Positions 45,343-50,914 of a stretch of 55,945 nucleotides of DNA are shown here, in pieces. The first letter of the stretch is position 1; every line of letters begins with the position of its first letter. Under the pieces are notes generated by a model. That model did not search any database, had not been told where the DNA came from, and worked only from the letters and a program-made list of their open reading frames with translations. The DNA is from Candidatus Dormiibacterota bacterium (GTDB lineage: Bacteria; Chloroflexota; Dormibacteria; Aeolococcales; Aeolococcaceae): contig PKYW01000017.1 in NCBI GenBank assembly GCA_003132805.1, forward strand, positions 28,975 through 84,919, read 5' to 3'. The position numbers and the translations under genes were made by a program.

Positions 45343-45435
45343 ACTTGATCACAGACGGCGATGGAGCTCGCCGAAACCGCCTTCATGACTGATGGCTCCT
45401 GCTGACGGCCCCTATGGGCAGAACAGGAGCGAGCC

Positions 45436-47067
45436 ATGGCAGACGGAACAACTCGGGTCCCCGACCTACACCCAGGTAATCAACCGGGCCACGCAGCGGG
45501 CGAACCGGCCTCGGCGTCACCCGCGCCTCGTCGCTTTATCAGTTTGCTGGCCGACGGGGCGCCGGAAAGGGCGGACCTCTACGGGCGAGAGGATCGCTCA
45601 TTCGCAGCTGACCTGAACCTGGATCAGTTCGTGGGGAAGATTGCCGGAGTGCAGGAGGAACCTGCCTTCATCGCGTCGCTCCTCTACACGCAACTCGACG
45701 ACGTCGATACCGTGCACTACCGGCACGAAGTCTTTCGGGACTTGGAGGACCTGCCCCTTCTCGGACAGATGCAGGAATTCGCGGAGCTGATGCACCAGGT
45801 GCGCAGCCACCTCGCTCAGGTCCACAAGATGCAGTATCAATACCAACGCGAGGGTTGGTTCCTGGATGCGGCTTCCATGTATTGCAAAGCCGTCCAATCC
45901 CTGGTAGACGCTCTAGGTAATGCGCCGCTCGGATCCCGCGCGCTTTGCGCTTTCCGCGCTTTCCTGGCGTCCTATGTTGTGTCAGCCGAGTTCGAATTGC
46001 TCATTGCCGACACGCGCGATCGGAAGGACGCCCTTGCCCAGATTCGCTATTGCACCCGCATTCGAGGCTTGAGAGTCGACGTGAGCCGCTACGAGGATCA
46101 GGCCGACTACAGCGTCGAGGTCCTGGAGACGTTCGACCGATTCAAGCAGGGGGACGCCAAAGACTATCGAGTCAAGTACCGAGGTTGGCCGGGAATGAAC
46201 CACGTGGCCGCGCAGATCCTGGAGCTGGTTGCGCGGCTGTTCCCTGATGAGTTCCAGGCACTGGATGAGTACTGCCGCCGGCACGCCGAATTCTTCGACG
46301 AACAGATCCGGCGGGTCGAGCGTGAGCTGAGCTTCTACCTTGGCTATCTGGATTACATCAGACCGCTCAGTGCGGCGGGACTCAGCTTCTGCTATCCGGA
46401 TGTGACCGCGAAGTCGAAAGCGATCTTCGCCGTCGACACCTTTGACCTGGCGCTTGCCAAGAAACTCGTTTCAGAGGGCAAGCCCATCGTGCGCAACGAC
46501 TTCCAGCTGGAAGGTCCGGAGCGCATCTTCGTTGTCTCAGGGCCGAACCAGGGAGGTAAGACGACATTCGCCCGAATGTTCGGTCAGCTCCACCACCTGG
46601 CCAGCACTGGGTGCCCGGTTCCCGGGAACGCGGCTCGTCTCTTGCTCTTCGACCGGCTGTTCGTCCACTTCGAGAGGAAGGAGGACCTCGCCAACATGCG
46701 CGGCAAGCTGGAGGATGACCTGGTCAGGATCCGAGCGATCCTCCAGGCGGCAACGTCCAACAGCATTGTCATCATGAATGAGATCTTCACGTCGACGACG
46801 CTTCGGGATGCTCGGTTTCTCGGCGAGAAGGTGATGGAGAAGATCATCCAACTCGACGTGTTGTGTGTCTATGTAACCTTCGTCGACGAGCTCGCTTCGC
46901 TCGGCGACTCGGTCGTCAGCATGGTGAGTACGGTCGTCCCCGAGAATCCCGTCGAGCGCACCTACAAAGTGGTCAGGGGACCCGCCGACGGGCTCGCTTT
47001 TGCGCTGAGCATCGCCGAGAAGCACAACGTCACGTACCAACGCTTACGGAAGCGGATCATCGTGTGA
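45436..47067 (+). CDS. MutS-like ATPase, first of tandem pair
   Basis: Protein of 543 residues. After a disordered N-terminus (1-35) comes a helical lever/clamp region (60-320) without MutS mismatch-recognition or connector domains, then an ABC-type MutS ATPase domain (345-543). Walker A is GPNQGGKTT (369-377). The Walker B strand ends SIVIMNEIF (443-451), with Asn where MutS has Asp, then TSTTLRDA. The His of the H-loop is absent (VYVTFVDELA). Not MutS1 or MutS2. Its stop overlaps the start of the second MutS-like gene by four bases (GTGA), so the two are co-translated and may form a heterodimer. Role unknown. Confidence 0.88.
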   Translation: MADGTTRVPDLHPGNQPGHAAGEPASASPAPRRFISLLADGAPERADLYGREDRSFAADLNLDQFVGKIAGVQEEPAFIASLLYTQLDDVDTVHYRHEVFRDLEDLPLLGQMQEFAELMHQVRSHLAQVHKMQYQYQREGWFLDAASMYCKAVQSLVDALGNAPLGSRALCAFRAFLASYVVSAEFELLIADTRDRKDALAQIRYCTRIRGLRVDVSRYEDQADYSVEVLETFDRFKQGDAKDYRVKYRGWPGMNHVAAQILELVARLFPDEFQALDEYCRRHAEFFDEQIRRVERELSFYLGYLDYIRPLSAAGLSFCYPDVTAKSKAIFAVDTFDLALAKKLVSEGKPIVRNDFQLEGPERIFVVSGPNQGGKTTFARMFGQLHHLASTGCPVPGNAARLLLFDRLFVHFERKEDLANMRGKLEDDLVRIRAILQAATSNSIVIMNEIFTSTTLRDARFLGEKVMEKIIQLDVLCVYVTFVDELASLGDSVVSMVSTVVPENPVERTYKVVRGPADGLAFALSIAEKHNVTYQRLRKRIIV

Positions 47068-48641
47068 AGGCATTCCTCCTCTACAAGGATCAGGACTTCG
47101 ACTTCGGCGCCGAGCTCCCTCCCAATCACAAAGACCTGATTCAGGACCTGGAGATGGGCAATGTGCTCGAGTCGATGGCCCTCGGCGACAAGTTCCTGTT
47201 CGAGGTGTCAACGAAAGTCGCACTGGCTAGTCTCCGCGATCCGGAAGCCATCCTCTATCGCCAGCGCATCCTGGTGGACTGCATCGCTGAACCGGAAATC
47301 GTGCGAGAGATGTATGCCATCGCCGTAGGCGCCCTCGAGGACAAGCGAGGAATCTGGGCGTATAGCTCACAGATTCCCTCATCCATCCTTTCCGGAGCGG
47401 TCAATCAGCTCGAGGCGGCTGTCGTTCGTCTCAAGCAACTGCGCAGGATCGCCGATGACCATGCTGAGCGGTTTCACTCAGCCGGCTTGACGACGTTGTT
47501 CCGGACCTTGCAGCGCGAACTTGACGACGAGTACTTCCGGACCATCAGCTTTCACCTGAAGCAACTTCGCTTCCGTGATGGCCAGTTGATCAGCGCACAG
47601 CTGGATCGGGACAACAGTGGCATCGACTTCGTCCTCCGATCCTCAGACCGGGGAAAGCGAGGCTGGAAGGAACGCCTGGGAATGGTTCCTCGTTCCTCGT
47701 ACTCGTTCACCATCGCGCCGCGCGACGATGCGGGCGCCAATGCTCTCTCAGACCTCACCAGCCGAGGGGTCAATCTCGTCGCCAACGCGGCGGCGCAGTC
47801 TGCCGACCACATCTGGAGCTACTTCATCATGCTCCGCGGCGAGTTGGGCTTTTATGTGAGTTGTCTCAACCTCTGGGACCGGCTCGTGGCAAAGGGGGAG
47901 ACCGTCTCGTATCCCGAACCGCGTTCCTGGCCACAGCGAGTGATGTCGTTCACCGGCTTACGTGATATGAGCCTCGCGCTGCGCTCCGAGAGGCAGGTCG
48001 TCGGCAACGACGTCGACGCCAGTGGGCAATCGCTGGTCATCATCACCGGTGCGAATTCCGGAGGCAAATCGACGTTTCTCCGCAGTGTCGGGCTGGCGCA
48101 GCTCATGACGCAATGCGGCATGTTCGTCACCGCCGATGCGTATCGCGCCAGTGTCTTCGACGGAGTCTTCACGCATTTCATCAGGGAGGAGGACGCCAGC
48201 ATGACGAGCGGACGGCTCGATGAGGAACTCAGCCGGATGAGCACCATCGCCGATGAGATTCGCCCGCACTGTCTCATGCTGTTCAACGAGTCCTTTGCCG
48301 CGACCAACGAGCGCGAGGGGTCCGAGATCGGCCGCCAGGTCGTCAGCGCACTGCTGGATGCAGAGATCACGGTCTTCTTTGTGACCCACCAGTTCGACTT
48401 CGCCGACGGATTCCATAGGCAGCGCGCTGACTCAACACTCTTTCTCAGGGCTGAACGACGATCCGAGGGTCAGGCAAGCTACAAGCTCGCCGTAGCAGAG
48501 CCACTCCCGACCAGCTTTGGTGAAGACATCTACTACCAGCTCGGCGGCTGGCTGGACAGCGACTCCGACCGACCGGCGGCATTGAGCGCCACAACCTCAG
48601 CCTCCGAGGAACGATTGGCGCACGGACTCGACGCGCGCTAG
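47064..48641 (+). CDS. MutS-like ATPase, second of tandem pair
   Basis: Protein of 525 residues from GTG 47064. A helical lever region (about 25-300) precedes the ATPase domain. Walker A is GANSGGKST (329-337); Walker B ends CLMLFNESF (403-411), again Asn-Glu, followed by AATNEREG. This protein keeps the H-loop His (FFVTHQFDFA, H442). No mismatch-recognition domain is present. Asymmetric catalytic features versus the first protein suggest division of labour in a heterodimer (inference). The 3' end overlaps the convergent dynamin-like GTPase gene by 45 bases. Confidence 0.88.
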   Translation: MKAFLLYKDQDFDFGAELPPNHKDLIQDLEMGNVLESMALGDKFLFEVSTKVALASLRDPEAILYRQRILVDCIAEPEIVREMYAIAVGALEDKRGIWAYSSQIPSSILSGAVNQLEAAVVRLKQLRRIADDHAERFHSAGLTTLFRTLQRELDDEYFRTISFHLKQLRFRDGQLISAQLDRDNSGIDFVLRSSDRGKRGWKERLGMVPRSSYSFTIAPRDDAGANALSDLTSRGVNLVANAAAQSADHIWSYFIMLRGELGFYVSCLNLWDRLVAKGETVSYPEPRSWPQRVMSFTGLRDMSLALRSERQVVGNDVDASGQSLVIITGANSGGKSTFLRSVGLAQLMTQCGMFVTADAYRASVFDGVFTHFIREEDASMTSGRLDEELSRMSTIADEIRPHCLMLFNESFAATNEREGSEIGRQVVSALLDAEITVFFVTHQFDFADGFHRQRADSTLFLRAERRSEGQASYKLAVAEPLPTSFGEDIYYQLGGWLDSDSDRPAALSATTSASEERLAHGLDAR

Positions 48642-50249
48642 GACATCGGACTCCACCATGGTCGCTTCGTGCCGTTCTGCCGCAGCCTCGGCACGGGTAA
48701 CGGCGCCGGCCAGAGACTCACTCAACCCGCGTGATGACTCTTCCGCCTCGCGGATCCATGCTCGAGCTGTTCGATCGACGCTCCGCAGCGTCGCGTAGCG
48801 CAGCCGGCCGGCGAGGCGGTCAGCGTCCTCGATCGCCCGTTCCTGTCGGGCCCGCTCACGCCATCTCCTTCCAAGCGTGCCGGGCGCGCGCGTCTGGAGT
48901 TGGCGCACCCCCATCGCCAGCGCGCCCGGATCATCTGACAGGTCCACTCTCACCGCCTCCACATCAAGGCGGGGAGACACGTCGAACGCACTGGGGAGCG
49001 TTACGCCAAATGCCTGGCCAACCTCTGCGACGAAGCGCGTGGCCAGCTCCTGCACCCGCTCGGTATGTCGGTCGACCGGACCACGCATCGTCGCGATGAG
49101 CGCTTCCCCGACCTCACGCCGCCACGAAATCGCGGCGGCCATATAGATGTCCGGCCAGGCCTCATCCTTTGCGGCGAGCAGCAGCGTGGGAAGACTCTCG
49201 CGCAGTGCGGTTGCCCTCGGGTCGATGACGGTGTCCGTCGCGCGGCGGCACGCGGCAAGGAGTAGGGTCGACTCATCGTCCACTGCAGCTGCAAGCGCGG
49301 CTTGCGCCGCGGTGAACGCGGCGCGCGCCGTCGCCGCCTCTTGTGCCGGCTTAGCCGCGGCAGCTGCCTCGAGTTGGAGCATTGCGTCGACCAGCGACAG
49401 CAACGTCATTGCCACACGCACACCGCGCTGGCTCGAGAGCGTGGTCTGGGCAGTGGCGACATCGTTTCTCAGCCAGGCGGTCAGCGCCGCCAGGCCGCTG
49501 TCCTCATCGCCATTGCGCGCCGAGACGGCGAACACGGTGACATCTGAAGAGCTGGACAGAGCGACCACCCGGGGGCGTACGAAGTCCACCGCCTCCTGAA
49601 TCTCACTCGGCGCCAACCGGTCGACTTTGTTGAGACAGACCGCGATACGCGCGGCTGTCCGTGCTACGTCTTTGAGCAGGCGTGCCTCCGAGTCGGCCAG
49701 TGGCGCGTCGACACTCAGGACGAGGAGTGCGACATCGACTCGAGGCAGAAAGTCCACCGTGGCTTGCGTATTGTGGTGGTGAACGCTGCCGGTTCCCGGA
49801 GTGTCGACGAGAATCAGACCGCTGGCGAGCACCGGAGCCGGATATTCGATGATCGCCTCGCGAACCCCTTTGCGGTTTCCCGGATTCGCTTGTTCAGTGA
49901 GGTAGCCCTCAAGATCGCCGATGTCAATTGCGATTTCCGCACCGTCAAAAAGGCGAAGGGTTGCTCGTGGGGACTTCCCGAATCGCACCAATGCCGGGAC
50001 CGCGGTGACGGGAAGCACCCCTGTGGGCAGAAGGTCCGCTCCCAATAGGGCGTTGATAAGGGTGGTCTTGCCCCGCTTGAACTCGCCGATGACGGCGACA
50101 TAAAGCCCGGTCCCGGTCAACTTGTCAGCTGTCTCCTCGGCAAGGTGCCGCTGCGCCGATGGCAGCAACTCCAGCGATGCGAGCCCCCGCAGAGCTGCCT
50201 GGAGGGATGTCCCTGCGGCCTGTTCTCCAGCCACGGTCACCGCGCCCAT
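48597..50249 (-). CDS. Dynamin-like GTPase
   Basis: Large GTPase of 550 residues. GTPase elements: G1 VAVIGEFKRGKTTLINAL, G2 Thr in LLPTGVLPVTAVP, G3 LILVDTPGTGSVH, G4 CLNKVDRL. The rest is long alpha-helical, with Ala-rich helices (ALVDAMLQLEAAAAAKPAQE region) and a C-terminal helix, like bacterial dynamin-like proteins that remodel membranes. No membrane helix is evident. I use ATG 50249; the frame runs to 50315 and would overlap the small upstream gene. Convergent with the MutS-like pair by 45 bases. Confidence 0.88.
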   Translation of the reverse strand: MGAVTVAGEQAAGTSLQAALRGLASLELLPSAQRHLAEETADKLTGTGLYVAVIGEFKRGKTTLINALLGADLLPTGVLPVTAVPALVRFGKSPRATLRLFDGAEIAIDIGDLEGYLTEQANPGNRKGVREAIIEYPAPVLASGLILVDTPGTGSVHHHNTQATVDFLPRVDVALLVLSVDAPLADSEARLLKDVARTAARIAVCLNKVDRLAPSEIQEAVDFVRPRVVALSSSSDVTVFAVSARNGDEDSGLAALTAWLRNDVATAQTTLSSQRGVRVAMTLLSLVDAMLQLEAAAAAKPAQEAATARAAFTAAQAALAAAVDDESTLLLAACRRATDTVIDPRATALRESLPTLLLAAKDEAWPDIYMAAAISWRREVGEALIATMRGPVDRHTERVQELATRFVAEVGQAFGVTLPSAFDVSPRLDVEAVRVDLSDDPGALAMGVRQLQTRAPGTLGRRWRERARQERAIEDADRLAGRLRYATLRSVDRTARAWIREAEESSRGLSESLAGAVTRAEAAAERHEATMVESDVLARVESVRQSFLGG

Positions 50250-50268
50250 AACGCGCGCTTCCCGACTT

Positions 50269-50517
50269 TCATCCCCCGAGTTCGTCCCGCACACGGGGAT
50301 TCTGCGCGGGCTCATTGCTCAGCATCTCGAGCGCGAACCTGTCAAACACCTTATGGCGCCCGATAGGAACCTGTATGTGCCGATGCGCGCTGCCCACCGG
50401 CGTCTGCAGGTCCAGCAACCATGTTCCGCGAGCGCCACGCACCAGCAGAACGTCATCAAATCGTAGGAGGAGTCCGCCATTTTCGGAGCGCTCCGCCACC
50501 GGGCGTCGATGGGACAT
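50269..50517 (-). CDS. Small hypothetical protein upstream of dynamin-like gene
   Basis: Open frame of 82 residues, MSHRRPVAERSENGG..., with strand-like segments LLLRFDDVLLVRGARGTWLL followed by DLQTPVG and HIQVPIGRHKVFDRFALEML. A GGAGG site lies 8 bases before the ATG. It ends 19 bases before the GTPase start on the same strand, so they are probably in one unit. I do not recognise the family. Confidence 0.55.
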   Translation of the reverse strand: MSHRRPVAERSENGGLLLRFDDVLLVRGARGTWLLDLQTPVGSAHRHIQVPIGRHKVFDRFALEMLSNEPAQNPRVRDELGG

Positions 50518-50546
50518 AGCCCTAACCTCCATGAACATGGTGGTCA

Positions 50547-50575
50547 GGGGCCATTAGCTCAACCGGAGCGCTTCC
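50547..50575 (+). other. tRNA-like 5' relic
   Basis: GGGGCCATTAGCTCAACCGG followed by AGCGCTTCC reads like the acceptor strand, D arm (GCTC/GAGC) and start of the anticodon stem of a tRNA-Ala or Val. The 3' half, including GGTTCGA and the matching acceptor strand, is absent, so this is not a functional tRNA. It lies at the edge of a stretch holding broken genes. Confidence 0.4.
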
Positions 50576-50695
50576 AGGATCCAAGCATCCTGCGGCGAGC
50601 CCCATCGCCATCGCACGACTGTAGCACTGCCCGCACCGCGAGGTGGAAGATTTCAACCAAGCGCATGGTAGAGTTGATGTGGCGATGGAGCCCGT

Positions 50696-50869
50696 CTAAC
50701 GTCTCGCCACTGTGGCTGATGGCTCCTGCTGATCCGACAGCGCTTCGGCCAGCTTTGTGAAGTTGTGCGCGGCCTGCGCCCCTCCGTGCACAACGATGAT
50801 TCCGGGCCCTTCACCAAACTGGCGATAGCCGATGGTTGTGCTATCGCGCGATGTCACCGATCCGGTCAT
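50696..50869 (-). pseudogene. Truncated alpha/beta hydrolase
   Basis: Begins like a complete alpha/beta hydrolase: MTGSVTSRDSTTIGYRQFGE then GPGIIVVHGGAQAAHNFTKL and AEALSD, that is the lead strand and oxyanion HGG segment. The frame then turns to unrelated residues and stops after 57 residues, before the nucleophile, acid and His parts, which I cannot find in the other frames nearby. Confidence 0.55.
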
Positions 50870-50914
50870 GCAGTGCCGACCAATCGGAGCCGGGTTCACG
50901 CGTCTGTCAAACGG

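What the first reader, a model, noticed from the sequence alone, without database searches (positions are those of the whole stretch)
45436..50517. Tandem MutS-like ATPases facing a dynamin-like GTPase: possible new system
Two MutS-type ATPases lacking mismatch-recognition domains overlap by four bases (GTGA) and converge with a dynamin-like GTPase, itself preceded by an 82-residue unknown protein. Both ATPases replace the Walker B Asp with Asn (NEIF, NESF). Only the second keeps the H-loop His, which suggests a specialised heterodimer. Dynamin-like GTPases and divergent DNA-repair ATPases both occur in phage-defence loci, so a DNA/membrane linked function is worth testing. The link between the GTPase and the ATPases rests only on proximity and a 45-base 3' overlap.
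Basis: partly seen in the sequence, partly recalled or inferred. Interest (0 to 1): 0.72.

Follow-up and report, generated by a model that had tools for sequence, protein, structure and literature searches.

The report
Fluoride-switched ATPase pair and dynamin-like GTPase
Two partner MutS-like ATPases and a dynamin-like GTPase, first suspected to be phage defence, are each preceded by a fluoride-sensing RNA switch and belong to the bacterial fluoride-stress response, where the GTPase appears to be a new member and the ATPases' job is still unexplained.

Summary
In detail: two domain-V MutS-like ATPases (45436-47067, 47064-48641, GTGA overlap) converge with a dynamin-like GTPase (48597-50315, minus) preceded by an 82-aa ORF. 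In both leaders the aptamer's 3' strand can pair with the Shine-Dalgarno region, the arrangement of a translational ON switch. Across 54 loci the ATPases are always an adjacent pair, often inside fluoride islands (crcB, enolase, pyrophosphatases, DUF190, CLC). GTPases of this subtype have fluoride riboswitches even when far from the pair (10 of 37 dynamin genes; about 2e-4 expected each), and co-occur with the pair in unselected genomes (11 of 12; p=2e-10). Orders vary: convergent, divergent, or one riboswitch-led operon. This is therefore a fluoride-stress module, not phage defence. MutS beside crcB-motif RNAs was noted in 2010; I found no report of the dynamin link. What the proteins do is inferred only: an ATP-driven heterodimer that remodels fluoride-blocked enzymes, and a membrane-surveillance GTPase.

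The parts
45348..45408 (+). Fluoride riboswitch aptamer (RF01734) in the leader of the ATPase pair
   Evidence: Rfam 50.0 bits, gathering 34, E 6e-11; conserved in L004, L005, L006, L007, L009
45394..45438 (+). Expression platform: aptamer 3' strand GGCUCCUG pairs with the Shine-Dalgarno CAGGAG (AGGAG at 45425-45429) and the start codon at 45436
   Evidence: MFE folds, same helix in L004, L005 and L009
45436..47067 (+). MutS-A: MutS-domain-V ATPase, Walker A GPNQGGKT, Walker B NEIF, no H-loop His
   Evidence: Pfam MutS_V 65 bits; alignments A1, A3
47064..48641 (+). MutS-B: MutS-domain-V ATPase, Walker A GANSGGKS, Walker B NESF, H-loop VTH
   Evidence: Pfam MutS_V 71 bits; alignment A2
48597..50315 (-). 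Dynamin-like GTPase (start 50315 or, as judged from the preceding gene's end, ATG 50249)
   Evidence: Dynamin_N 91 bits; phmmer relatives in PDB: 5owv bacterial GTP-binding protein, BDLP 2j68, IniA 6j72
50269..50517 (-). 82-aa protein of unknown family, first gene of the GTPase unit
   Evidence: SD GGAGG before ATG 50517; 83% and 76% identical homologues in L004 and L116 only
50538..50618 (-). Second fluoride riboswitch, leader of the 82-aa/GTPase unit; its 3' strand can sequester the SD
   Evidence: 31.6 bits, E 7e-7 in a 601-nt search; conserved in L004 and L116; GTPase leaders 100% paired with compensatory pseudoknot changes
50672..50735 (+). Third, probably orphan, fluoride-riboswitch-like element without an evident downstream gene
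   Evidence: 31.1 bits; lies in a ~280-bp segment absent from L004

Best explanation
This locus is a fluoride-stress module made of two convergent units, each switched on by fluoride through its own riboswitch. Shown by sequence: two aptamers, each directly upstream of its unit; a conserved helix in which the aptamer's 3' strand pairs with the ribosome-binding site; two full-length-paralogous MutS-like ATPases kept as a pair; and a dynamin-like GTPase subtype that is itself repeatedly behind fluoride riboswitches. Inferred: when Mg2+-fluoride binds the aptamer, the pseudoknot holds the anti-SD strand and translation starts. MutS-A and MutS-B then form an asymmetric heterodimer with two unequal ATP sites and no mismatch-recognition domain. 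My preferred guess (about 0.35) is that it is an ATP-driven clamp that remodels protein targets blocked by Mg-fluoride or metallofluoride complexes, such as metalloenzymes like enolase, pyrophosphatase or the hydrogenase-4-like complexes encoded beside it in relatives. The GTPase most likely (about 0.4) tends the membrane under HF/acid stress, as dynamin-like DynA does under other membrane stresses. The confidence given is for the fluoride-module assignment, not for these protein mechanisms.
For: Riboswitch before the ATPases. Riboswitch before the GTPase: with covariation across GTPase leaders (100% of cells paired, 3 pseudoknot pairs with changes on both sides, 0/500 shuffles as high on cells paired). 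SD sequestration. Pair always adjacent. Riboswitch directly upstream of the pair in 18 of 43 and within 12 kb in 30 of 43 loci under strict filters. Fluoride islands in Rhodococcus, Burkholderia, Enterobacter, E. coli and Alicyclobacillus plasmids. GTPase with riboswitch <=700 nt upstream in 10 of 37 dynamin genes (chance about 2e-4 per gene). One riboswitch-led operon GTPase - MutS-A - MutS-B in L096. Same convergent architecture with a riboswitch on both units in Burkholderia L012 and L128. Unselected co-occurrence 11 of 12, Fisher 2e-10 (7 of 8, 7e-7, after collapsing one genus). Negative control: nine loci of more distant dynamins, no riboswitch.
Against: No expression or phenotype data. 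The GTPase-unit riboswitch is below Rfam's gathering score. Most pairs have no GTPase nearby, so the two are not one obligate machine. The E. cloacae FRM resistance island, shown experimentally to work, has no mutS in its published gene table, so the pair is dispensable there. The protein-remodelling role rests on family resemblance and neighbours only. AlphaFold models were poor (pLDDT 50 and 43).
Confidence: 0.85

Rival explanations
1. Phage-defence or DNA/membrane immune system.
For: Dynamin-like proteins can protect against phage (B. subtilis DynA, PMC8844932); weak LeoA match of the GTPase in PADLOC (33 bits).
Against: Fluoride riboswitches on both units; neighbours are fluoride-resistance genes; no full-length phage homologue; no PADLOC system match for the ATPases.
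Confidence: 0.03
2. The ATPase pair is a DNA or recombination-intermediate clamp (like MSH4-MSH5, which also lack the mismatch-recognition domain) that repairs DNA damage arising under fluoride stress. This is the 2010 idea for mutS genes behind crcB-motif RNAs.
For: Full-chain fold matches of the (poor) model are all MutS/MutS2; the DNA-damage suggestion is in PMC2864571.
Against: No mismatch domain and no MutL or nuclease partner gene annotated in the plasmid neighbourhoods read; profile comparison with MutS2 aligns the ATPase domain only; the neighbours are ion transport and metabolism.
Confidence: 0.25
3. The pair works on stalled ribosomes, as MutS2 does, because fluoride and metallofluorides block translational GTPases.
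For: Best fold match is the MutS2-collided disome complex (7qv3); core plus ATPase length resembles MutS2 without its Smr tail.
Against: N-terminal halves not detectably related to MutS2; no translation gene annotated in the islands read.
Confidence: 0.1
4. The ATPases and the GTPase are fluoride-insensitive stand-ins or sinks for metallofluoride-nucleotide complexes, the Walker-B Asn lowering Mg2+ and therefore Mg-fluoride affinity.
For: Walker-B NE is conserved in all pair members read; known fluoride islands carry extra copies of inhibited enzymes.
Against: The same NE occurs in distant relatives (L078-L080, L130), L130 lying outside a fluoride context, so it is a superfamily trait rather than an adaptation to fluoride.
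Confidence: 0.1

Closest known systems
crcB-motif / fluoride riboswitch regulons (RF01734; Weinberg 2010 PMC2864571)
   Same: Aptamer 5' of mutS-annotated genes was already listed in 2010; the same island genes (crcB, eno, pyrophosphatase, usp) appear around the relatives.
   Different: In the accessible papers the mutS gene is not described as an obligate tandem pair and no dynamin-like GTPase is named; the latter could be in Baker 2012, which was not held.
Enterobacter cloacae FRM fluoride operon (PMC5533749)
   Same: The Enterobacter and E. coli plasmid islands L013/L015 share crcB, PGAM and eno (L015 also uspA and a DHHA2-type pyrophosphatase) with it, next to the ATPase pair.
   Different: Its gene table lists no MutS pair and no GTPase, and it is resistant without them.
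MutS / MutS2 / MSH family ATPases
   Same: MutS domain V, P-loop, H-loop in MutS-B.
   Different: No domain I, no Smr tail, unrelated N-terminal half by profile comparison with MutS2, Walker-B Asp replaced by Asn, H-loop absent in MutS-A.
KamC, lysine 5,6-aminomutase reactivase ATPase (NF052383)
   Same: Similar length (508 positions), MutS-type ATPase; best NCBIfam match of MutS-B by a narrow margin (70.6 bits against 68.8 for mutS2).
   Different: Far below the cut-off of 300 bits; match confined to the ATPase domain; different gene context.
Bacterial dynamin-like proteins (BDLP, IniA, DynA, LeoA)
   Same: Dynamin_N GTPase domain; nearest solved relatives.
   Different: Fluoride-riboswitch control; below the cut-off of every NCBIfam model matched; no strongly hydrophobic paddle or TM segment.

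Membership tests
Fluoride-riboswitch regulon | RF01734 aptamer in the 5' leader, ATPase unit | tested here: met
   50.0 bits against 34
Fluoride-riboswitch regulon | RF01734 aptamer in the 5' leader, 82-aa/GTPase unit | tested here: inconclusive
   31.6 bits, below the 34-bit cut-off; but conserved and fully paired with covariation across GTPase leaders, and over the cut-off in L096, L012 and L046
Fluoride-riboswitch regulon | Expression platform coupled to the aptamer | tested here: met
   SD-sequestering helix sharing the pseudoknot strand, conserved in relatives; terminators instead in L046, L053 and L115
Fluoride-riboswitch regulon | Induction by fluoride | not testable with these tools
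   needs reporter or RNA measurements
MutS mismatch-repair proteins | Mismatch-recognition domain I | tested here: not met
   Only MutS_V found over its cut-off by Pfam
MutS mismatch-repair proteins | NCBIfam equivalog cut-off (mutS1, mutS2) | tested here: not met
   58-80 bits for MutS and 51-69 for mutS2 against 400-642
KamC reactivase | NF052383 cut-off 300 bits | tested here: not met
   36.9 and 70.6 bits
Dynamin superfamily | Dynamin_N GTPase domain over gathering score | tested here: met
   91.3 against 27 bits
Dynamin superfamily | Membrane binding or remodelling | not testable with these tools
   no clear hydrophobic paddle in sequence
Known anti-phage systems (PADLOC) | Confident match of system proteins | tested here: not met
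   ATPases at best 17.5 bits; GTPase 33 bits to LeoA

The most novel reading that the evidence does not exclude
Tandem MutS-like heterodimers are a family of ATP-driven reactivases for metal enzymes rather than DNA-repair proteins. The fluoride-controlled branch frees enzymes locked by Mg-fluoride complexes, and works with a dynamin-like GTPase that protects membranes from HF. It would be a repair arm of fluoride resistance alongside export and enzyme replacement. A distant tandem pair directly behind the [FeFe]-hydrogenase maturase gene hydG (L130) and the KamC annotation hint at such a theme.
Probability: 0.2. Interest if true: 0.85.

Novelty: new variant of a known kind. Interest (0 to 1): 0.64.

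Why it matters
The mutS genes behind fluoride riboswitches have had no explanation in the papers I could read since they were noted in 2010. Here they resolve into an obligate, asymmetric ATPase pair that lacks the mismatch-recognition domain, and a dynamin-like GTPase subtype joins the same regulon. That makes the question directly testable with reporter fusions and deletions. If the pair repairs fluoride-blocked enzymes or the GTPase protects membranes, fluoride resistance has a repair arm besides export and enzyme replacement. It also corrects automatic 'DNA mismatch repair protein MutS' labels on many plasmid genes.

Tried and rejected
Phage defence: rejected. Fused A-B proteins suggested by long open frames: rejected, the frames are spurious. 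Walker-B Asn as a fluoride-specific adaptation: weakened, because it also occurs in distant relatives. Membership in KamC, MutS1 or MutS2: fails the cut-offs. AlphaFold models of both ATPases: too poor to interpret beyond a helical N-terminal half; the fold search only confirms MutS/MutS2 as nearest. Literature searches for KamB/KamC, and for the fluoride riboswitch together with MutS or dynamin: nothing useful. Absence of CrcB and CLC in the window's genome: suggestive, but the assembly is 82% complete. My covariance model R1 is less sensitive than Rfam for aptamers with long insertions, so counts of riboswitches are lower bounds.

Full report
Observation. Pfam finds MutS_V in both ATPases and Dynamin_N in the GTPase. 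Profile comparison shows A and B to be full-length paralogues. Walker-B 'NE' is present in essentially every relative examined; the H-loop 'VTH' is in every B and in no A.

What was missed. A scan against Rfam finds one family in the whole window over its cut-off: the fluoride riboswitch RF01734 at 45348-45408, 28 bases before MutS-A (50.0 bits). A sensitive search of 601 bases around the start of the GTPase unit finds a second aptamer at 50538-50618 minus (31.6 bits, E 7e-7) and a third at 50672-50735 plus (31.1 bits). The whole-genome scan finds no others in this assembly. The second is below Rfam's gathering score, probably because of a long loop insertion, but the leader is conserved in L004 and L116. 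On an alignment of 13 GTPase-unit leaders all cells of stem P1 and of the pseudoknot pair, and three pseudoknot pairs have changes on both sides. Minimum-energy folds put the aptamer's 3' strand against the Shine-Dalgarno of each unit: GGCUCCUG with CAGGAG for MutS-A, UGGCCCCUGACC with GGUUAGGGCUA for the 82-aa gene. The helices recur in L004, L005, L009 and L116. Relatives L046, L053 and L115 have terminator hairpins instead. This is the anatomy of ON switches; induction itself is inferred.

The pair elsewhere. Profile searches found MutS-B in 36 of 301 genomes of the window's phylum, in 12 of 297 of a second group, and tblastn found relatives on 86 plasmid records. In 54 loci read, A and B are adjacent in all but one, which is cut by a contig end. 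On plasmids of Rhodococcus, Burkholderia, Enterobacter, E. coli and Alicyclobacillus the pair lies among fluoride genes: crcB, DUF190, enolase, pyrophosphatases, a CLC channel, universal stress proteins and antiporters. Under strict whole-genome filters a riboswitch lies directly upstream of 18 of 43 pairs and within 12 kb of 30 of 43. In some loci without one directly upstream, the pair ends a same-strand run of hydrogenase-4-like genes that itself starts behind a weak riboswitch match (L071, L072).

The GTPase elsewhere. Among 37 Dynamin_N genes in 48 pair-bearing genomes, 10 have a riboswitch within 700 bases upstream on the same strand, against about 2e-4 expected per gene. Six of these (G275, G239, G143, G135, G527, G505) are on other contigs than the pair. 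In L096 one riboswitch leads GTPase, MutS-A and MutS-B on one strand. In L009 the GTPase follows MutS-B by 15 bases. In Burkholderia L012 and L128 the convergent arrangement of the window recurs with a riboswitch on both arms. In L046 the two are divergent, each with a riboswitch-like leader. On a Lichenicola plasmid the best plasmid relative of the GTPase is divergent from crcB. In 301 genomes not chosen for the pair, the close GTPase subtype (E <= 1e-80) occurs in 12, of which 11 carry the pair (Fisher 2e-10; 7 of 8 and 7e-7 after collapsing one genus). The twelfth, G209, has a riboswitch match upstream of its GTPase. Nine loci of more distant dynamins have none. Cautions: the query alignment held some of these sequences, the 1e-80 line was drawn at a gap seen afterwards, and genomes are related.

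How it probably works. Shown: fluoride aptamers with SD-overlapping platforms on both units, an obligate ATPase pair, a shared regulon. Inferred: fluoride turns both units on. The pair's lack of a mismatch domain, its lack of detectable similarity to MutS2 outside the ATPase and its company of metal enzymes make classical mismatch repair unlikely. The best NCBIfam match of MutS-B is KamC, an aminomutase reactivase ATPase, but far below its cut-off and barely ahead of mutS2. A distant tandem pair sits behind hydG. I therefore favour remodelling of fluoride-blocked proteins (about 0.35) over a DNA clamp (0.25) or a ribosome role (0.1). For the GTPase, membrane surveillance as in DynA (PMC8844932) is the natural guess; there is no strong hydrophobic segment.

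Known or new. Weinberg et al. 2010 already placed crcB-motif RNAs before mutS and suspected DNA damage (PMC2864571). Known fluoride-island content is described in PMC5533749 and PMC11139923. The papers read do not name a dynamin-like GTPase, and a search for it found nothing, but Baker et al. 2012 was not held. I file the finding as a new variant of a known kind.

Noticed in passing
window 50626-50910: A ~280-bp segment absent from the close relative L004 carries a third fluoride-riboswitch-like element (50672-50735, plus) with no gene downstream and what looks by eye like an alpha/beta-hydrolase N-terminal fragment (50696-50899, minus): a probable remnant.
   Followed up: partly
L130 1057-5548 (MT837116.1, labelled bacteriophage, human faeces): A distant tandem MutS-like pair with overlapping ORFs lies directly downstream of an [FeFe]-hydrogenase maturase hydG (905 bits). 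Both ATPases have Walker-B NE. Tandem MutS-like pairs therefore extend beyond fluoride islands; the record is probably bacterial.
   Followed up: partly
L007: Three copies of the MutS-A/MutS-B pair within 17 kb of one contig.
   Followed up: no
L046 5260-6870, L008 5751-8171: A second, longer type of fluoride-island dynamin GTPase has a C-terminal Cys-rich DUF6062-like part (Pfam hit in L046 only) that the window's GTPase lacks.
   Followed up: partly
L116 8727-9073 and L005 10444-10547: In a relative (both loci on one contig) the 82-aa gene has its own riboswitch 1.5 kb from the separately riboswitch-led GTPase, and the same leader type recurs upstream of hydrogenase-4-like genes: the leaders look reused.
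   Followed up: partly
G000 and G305 whole genomes: No CrcB or CLC-type exporter detectable although fluoride riboswitches are present (the window's assembly is 82% complete), so tolerance may lean on other genes.
   Followed up: partly
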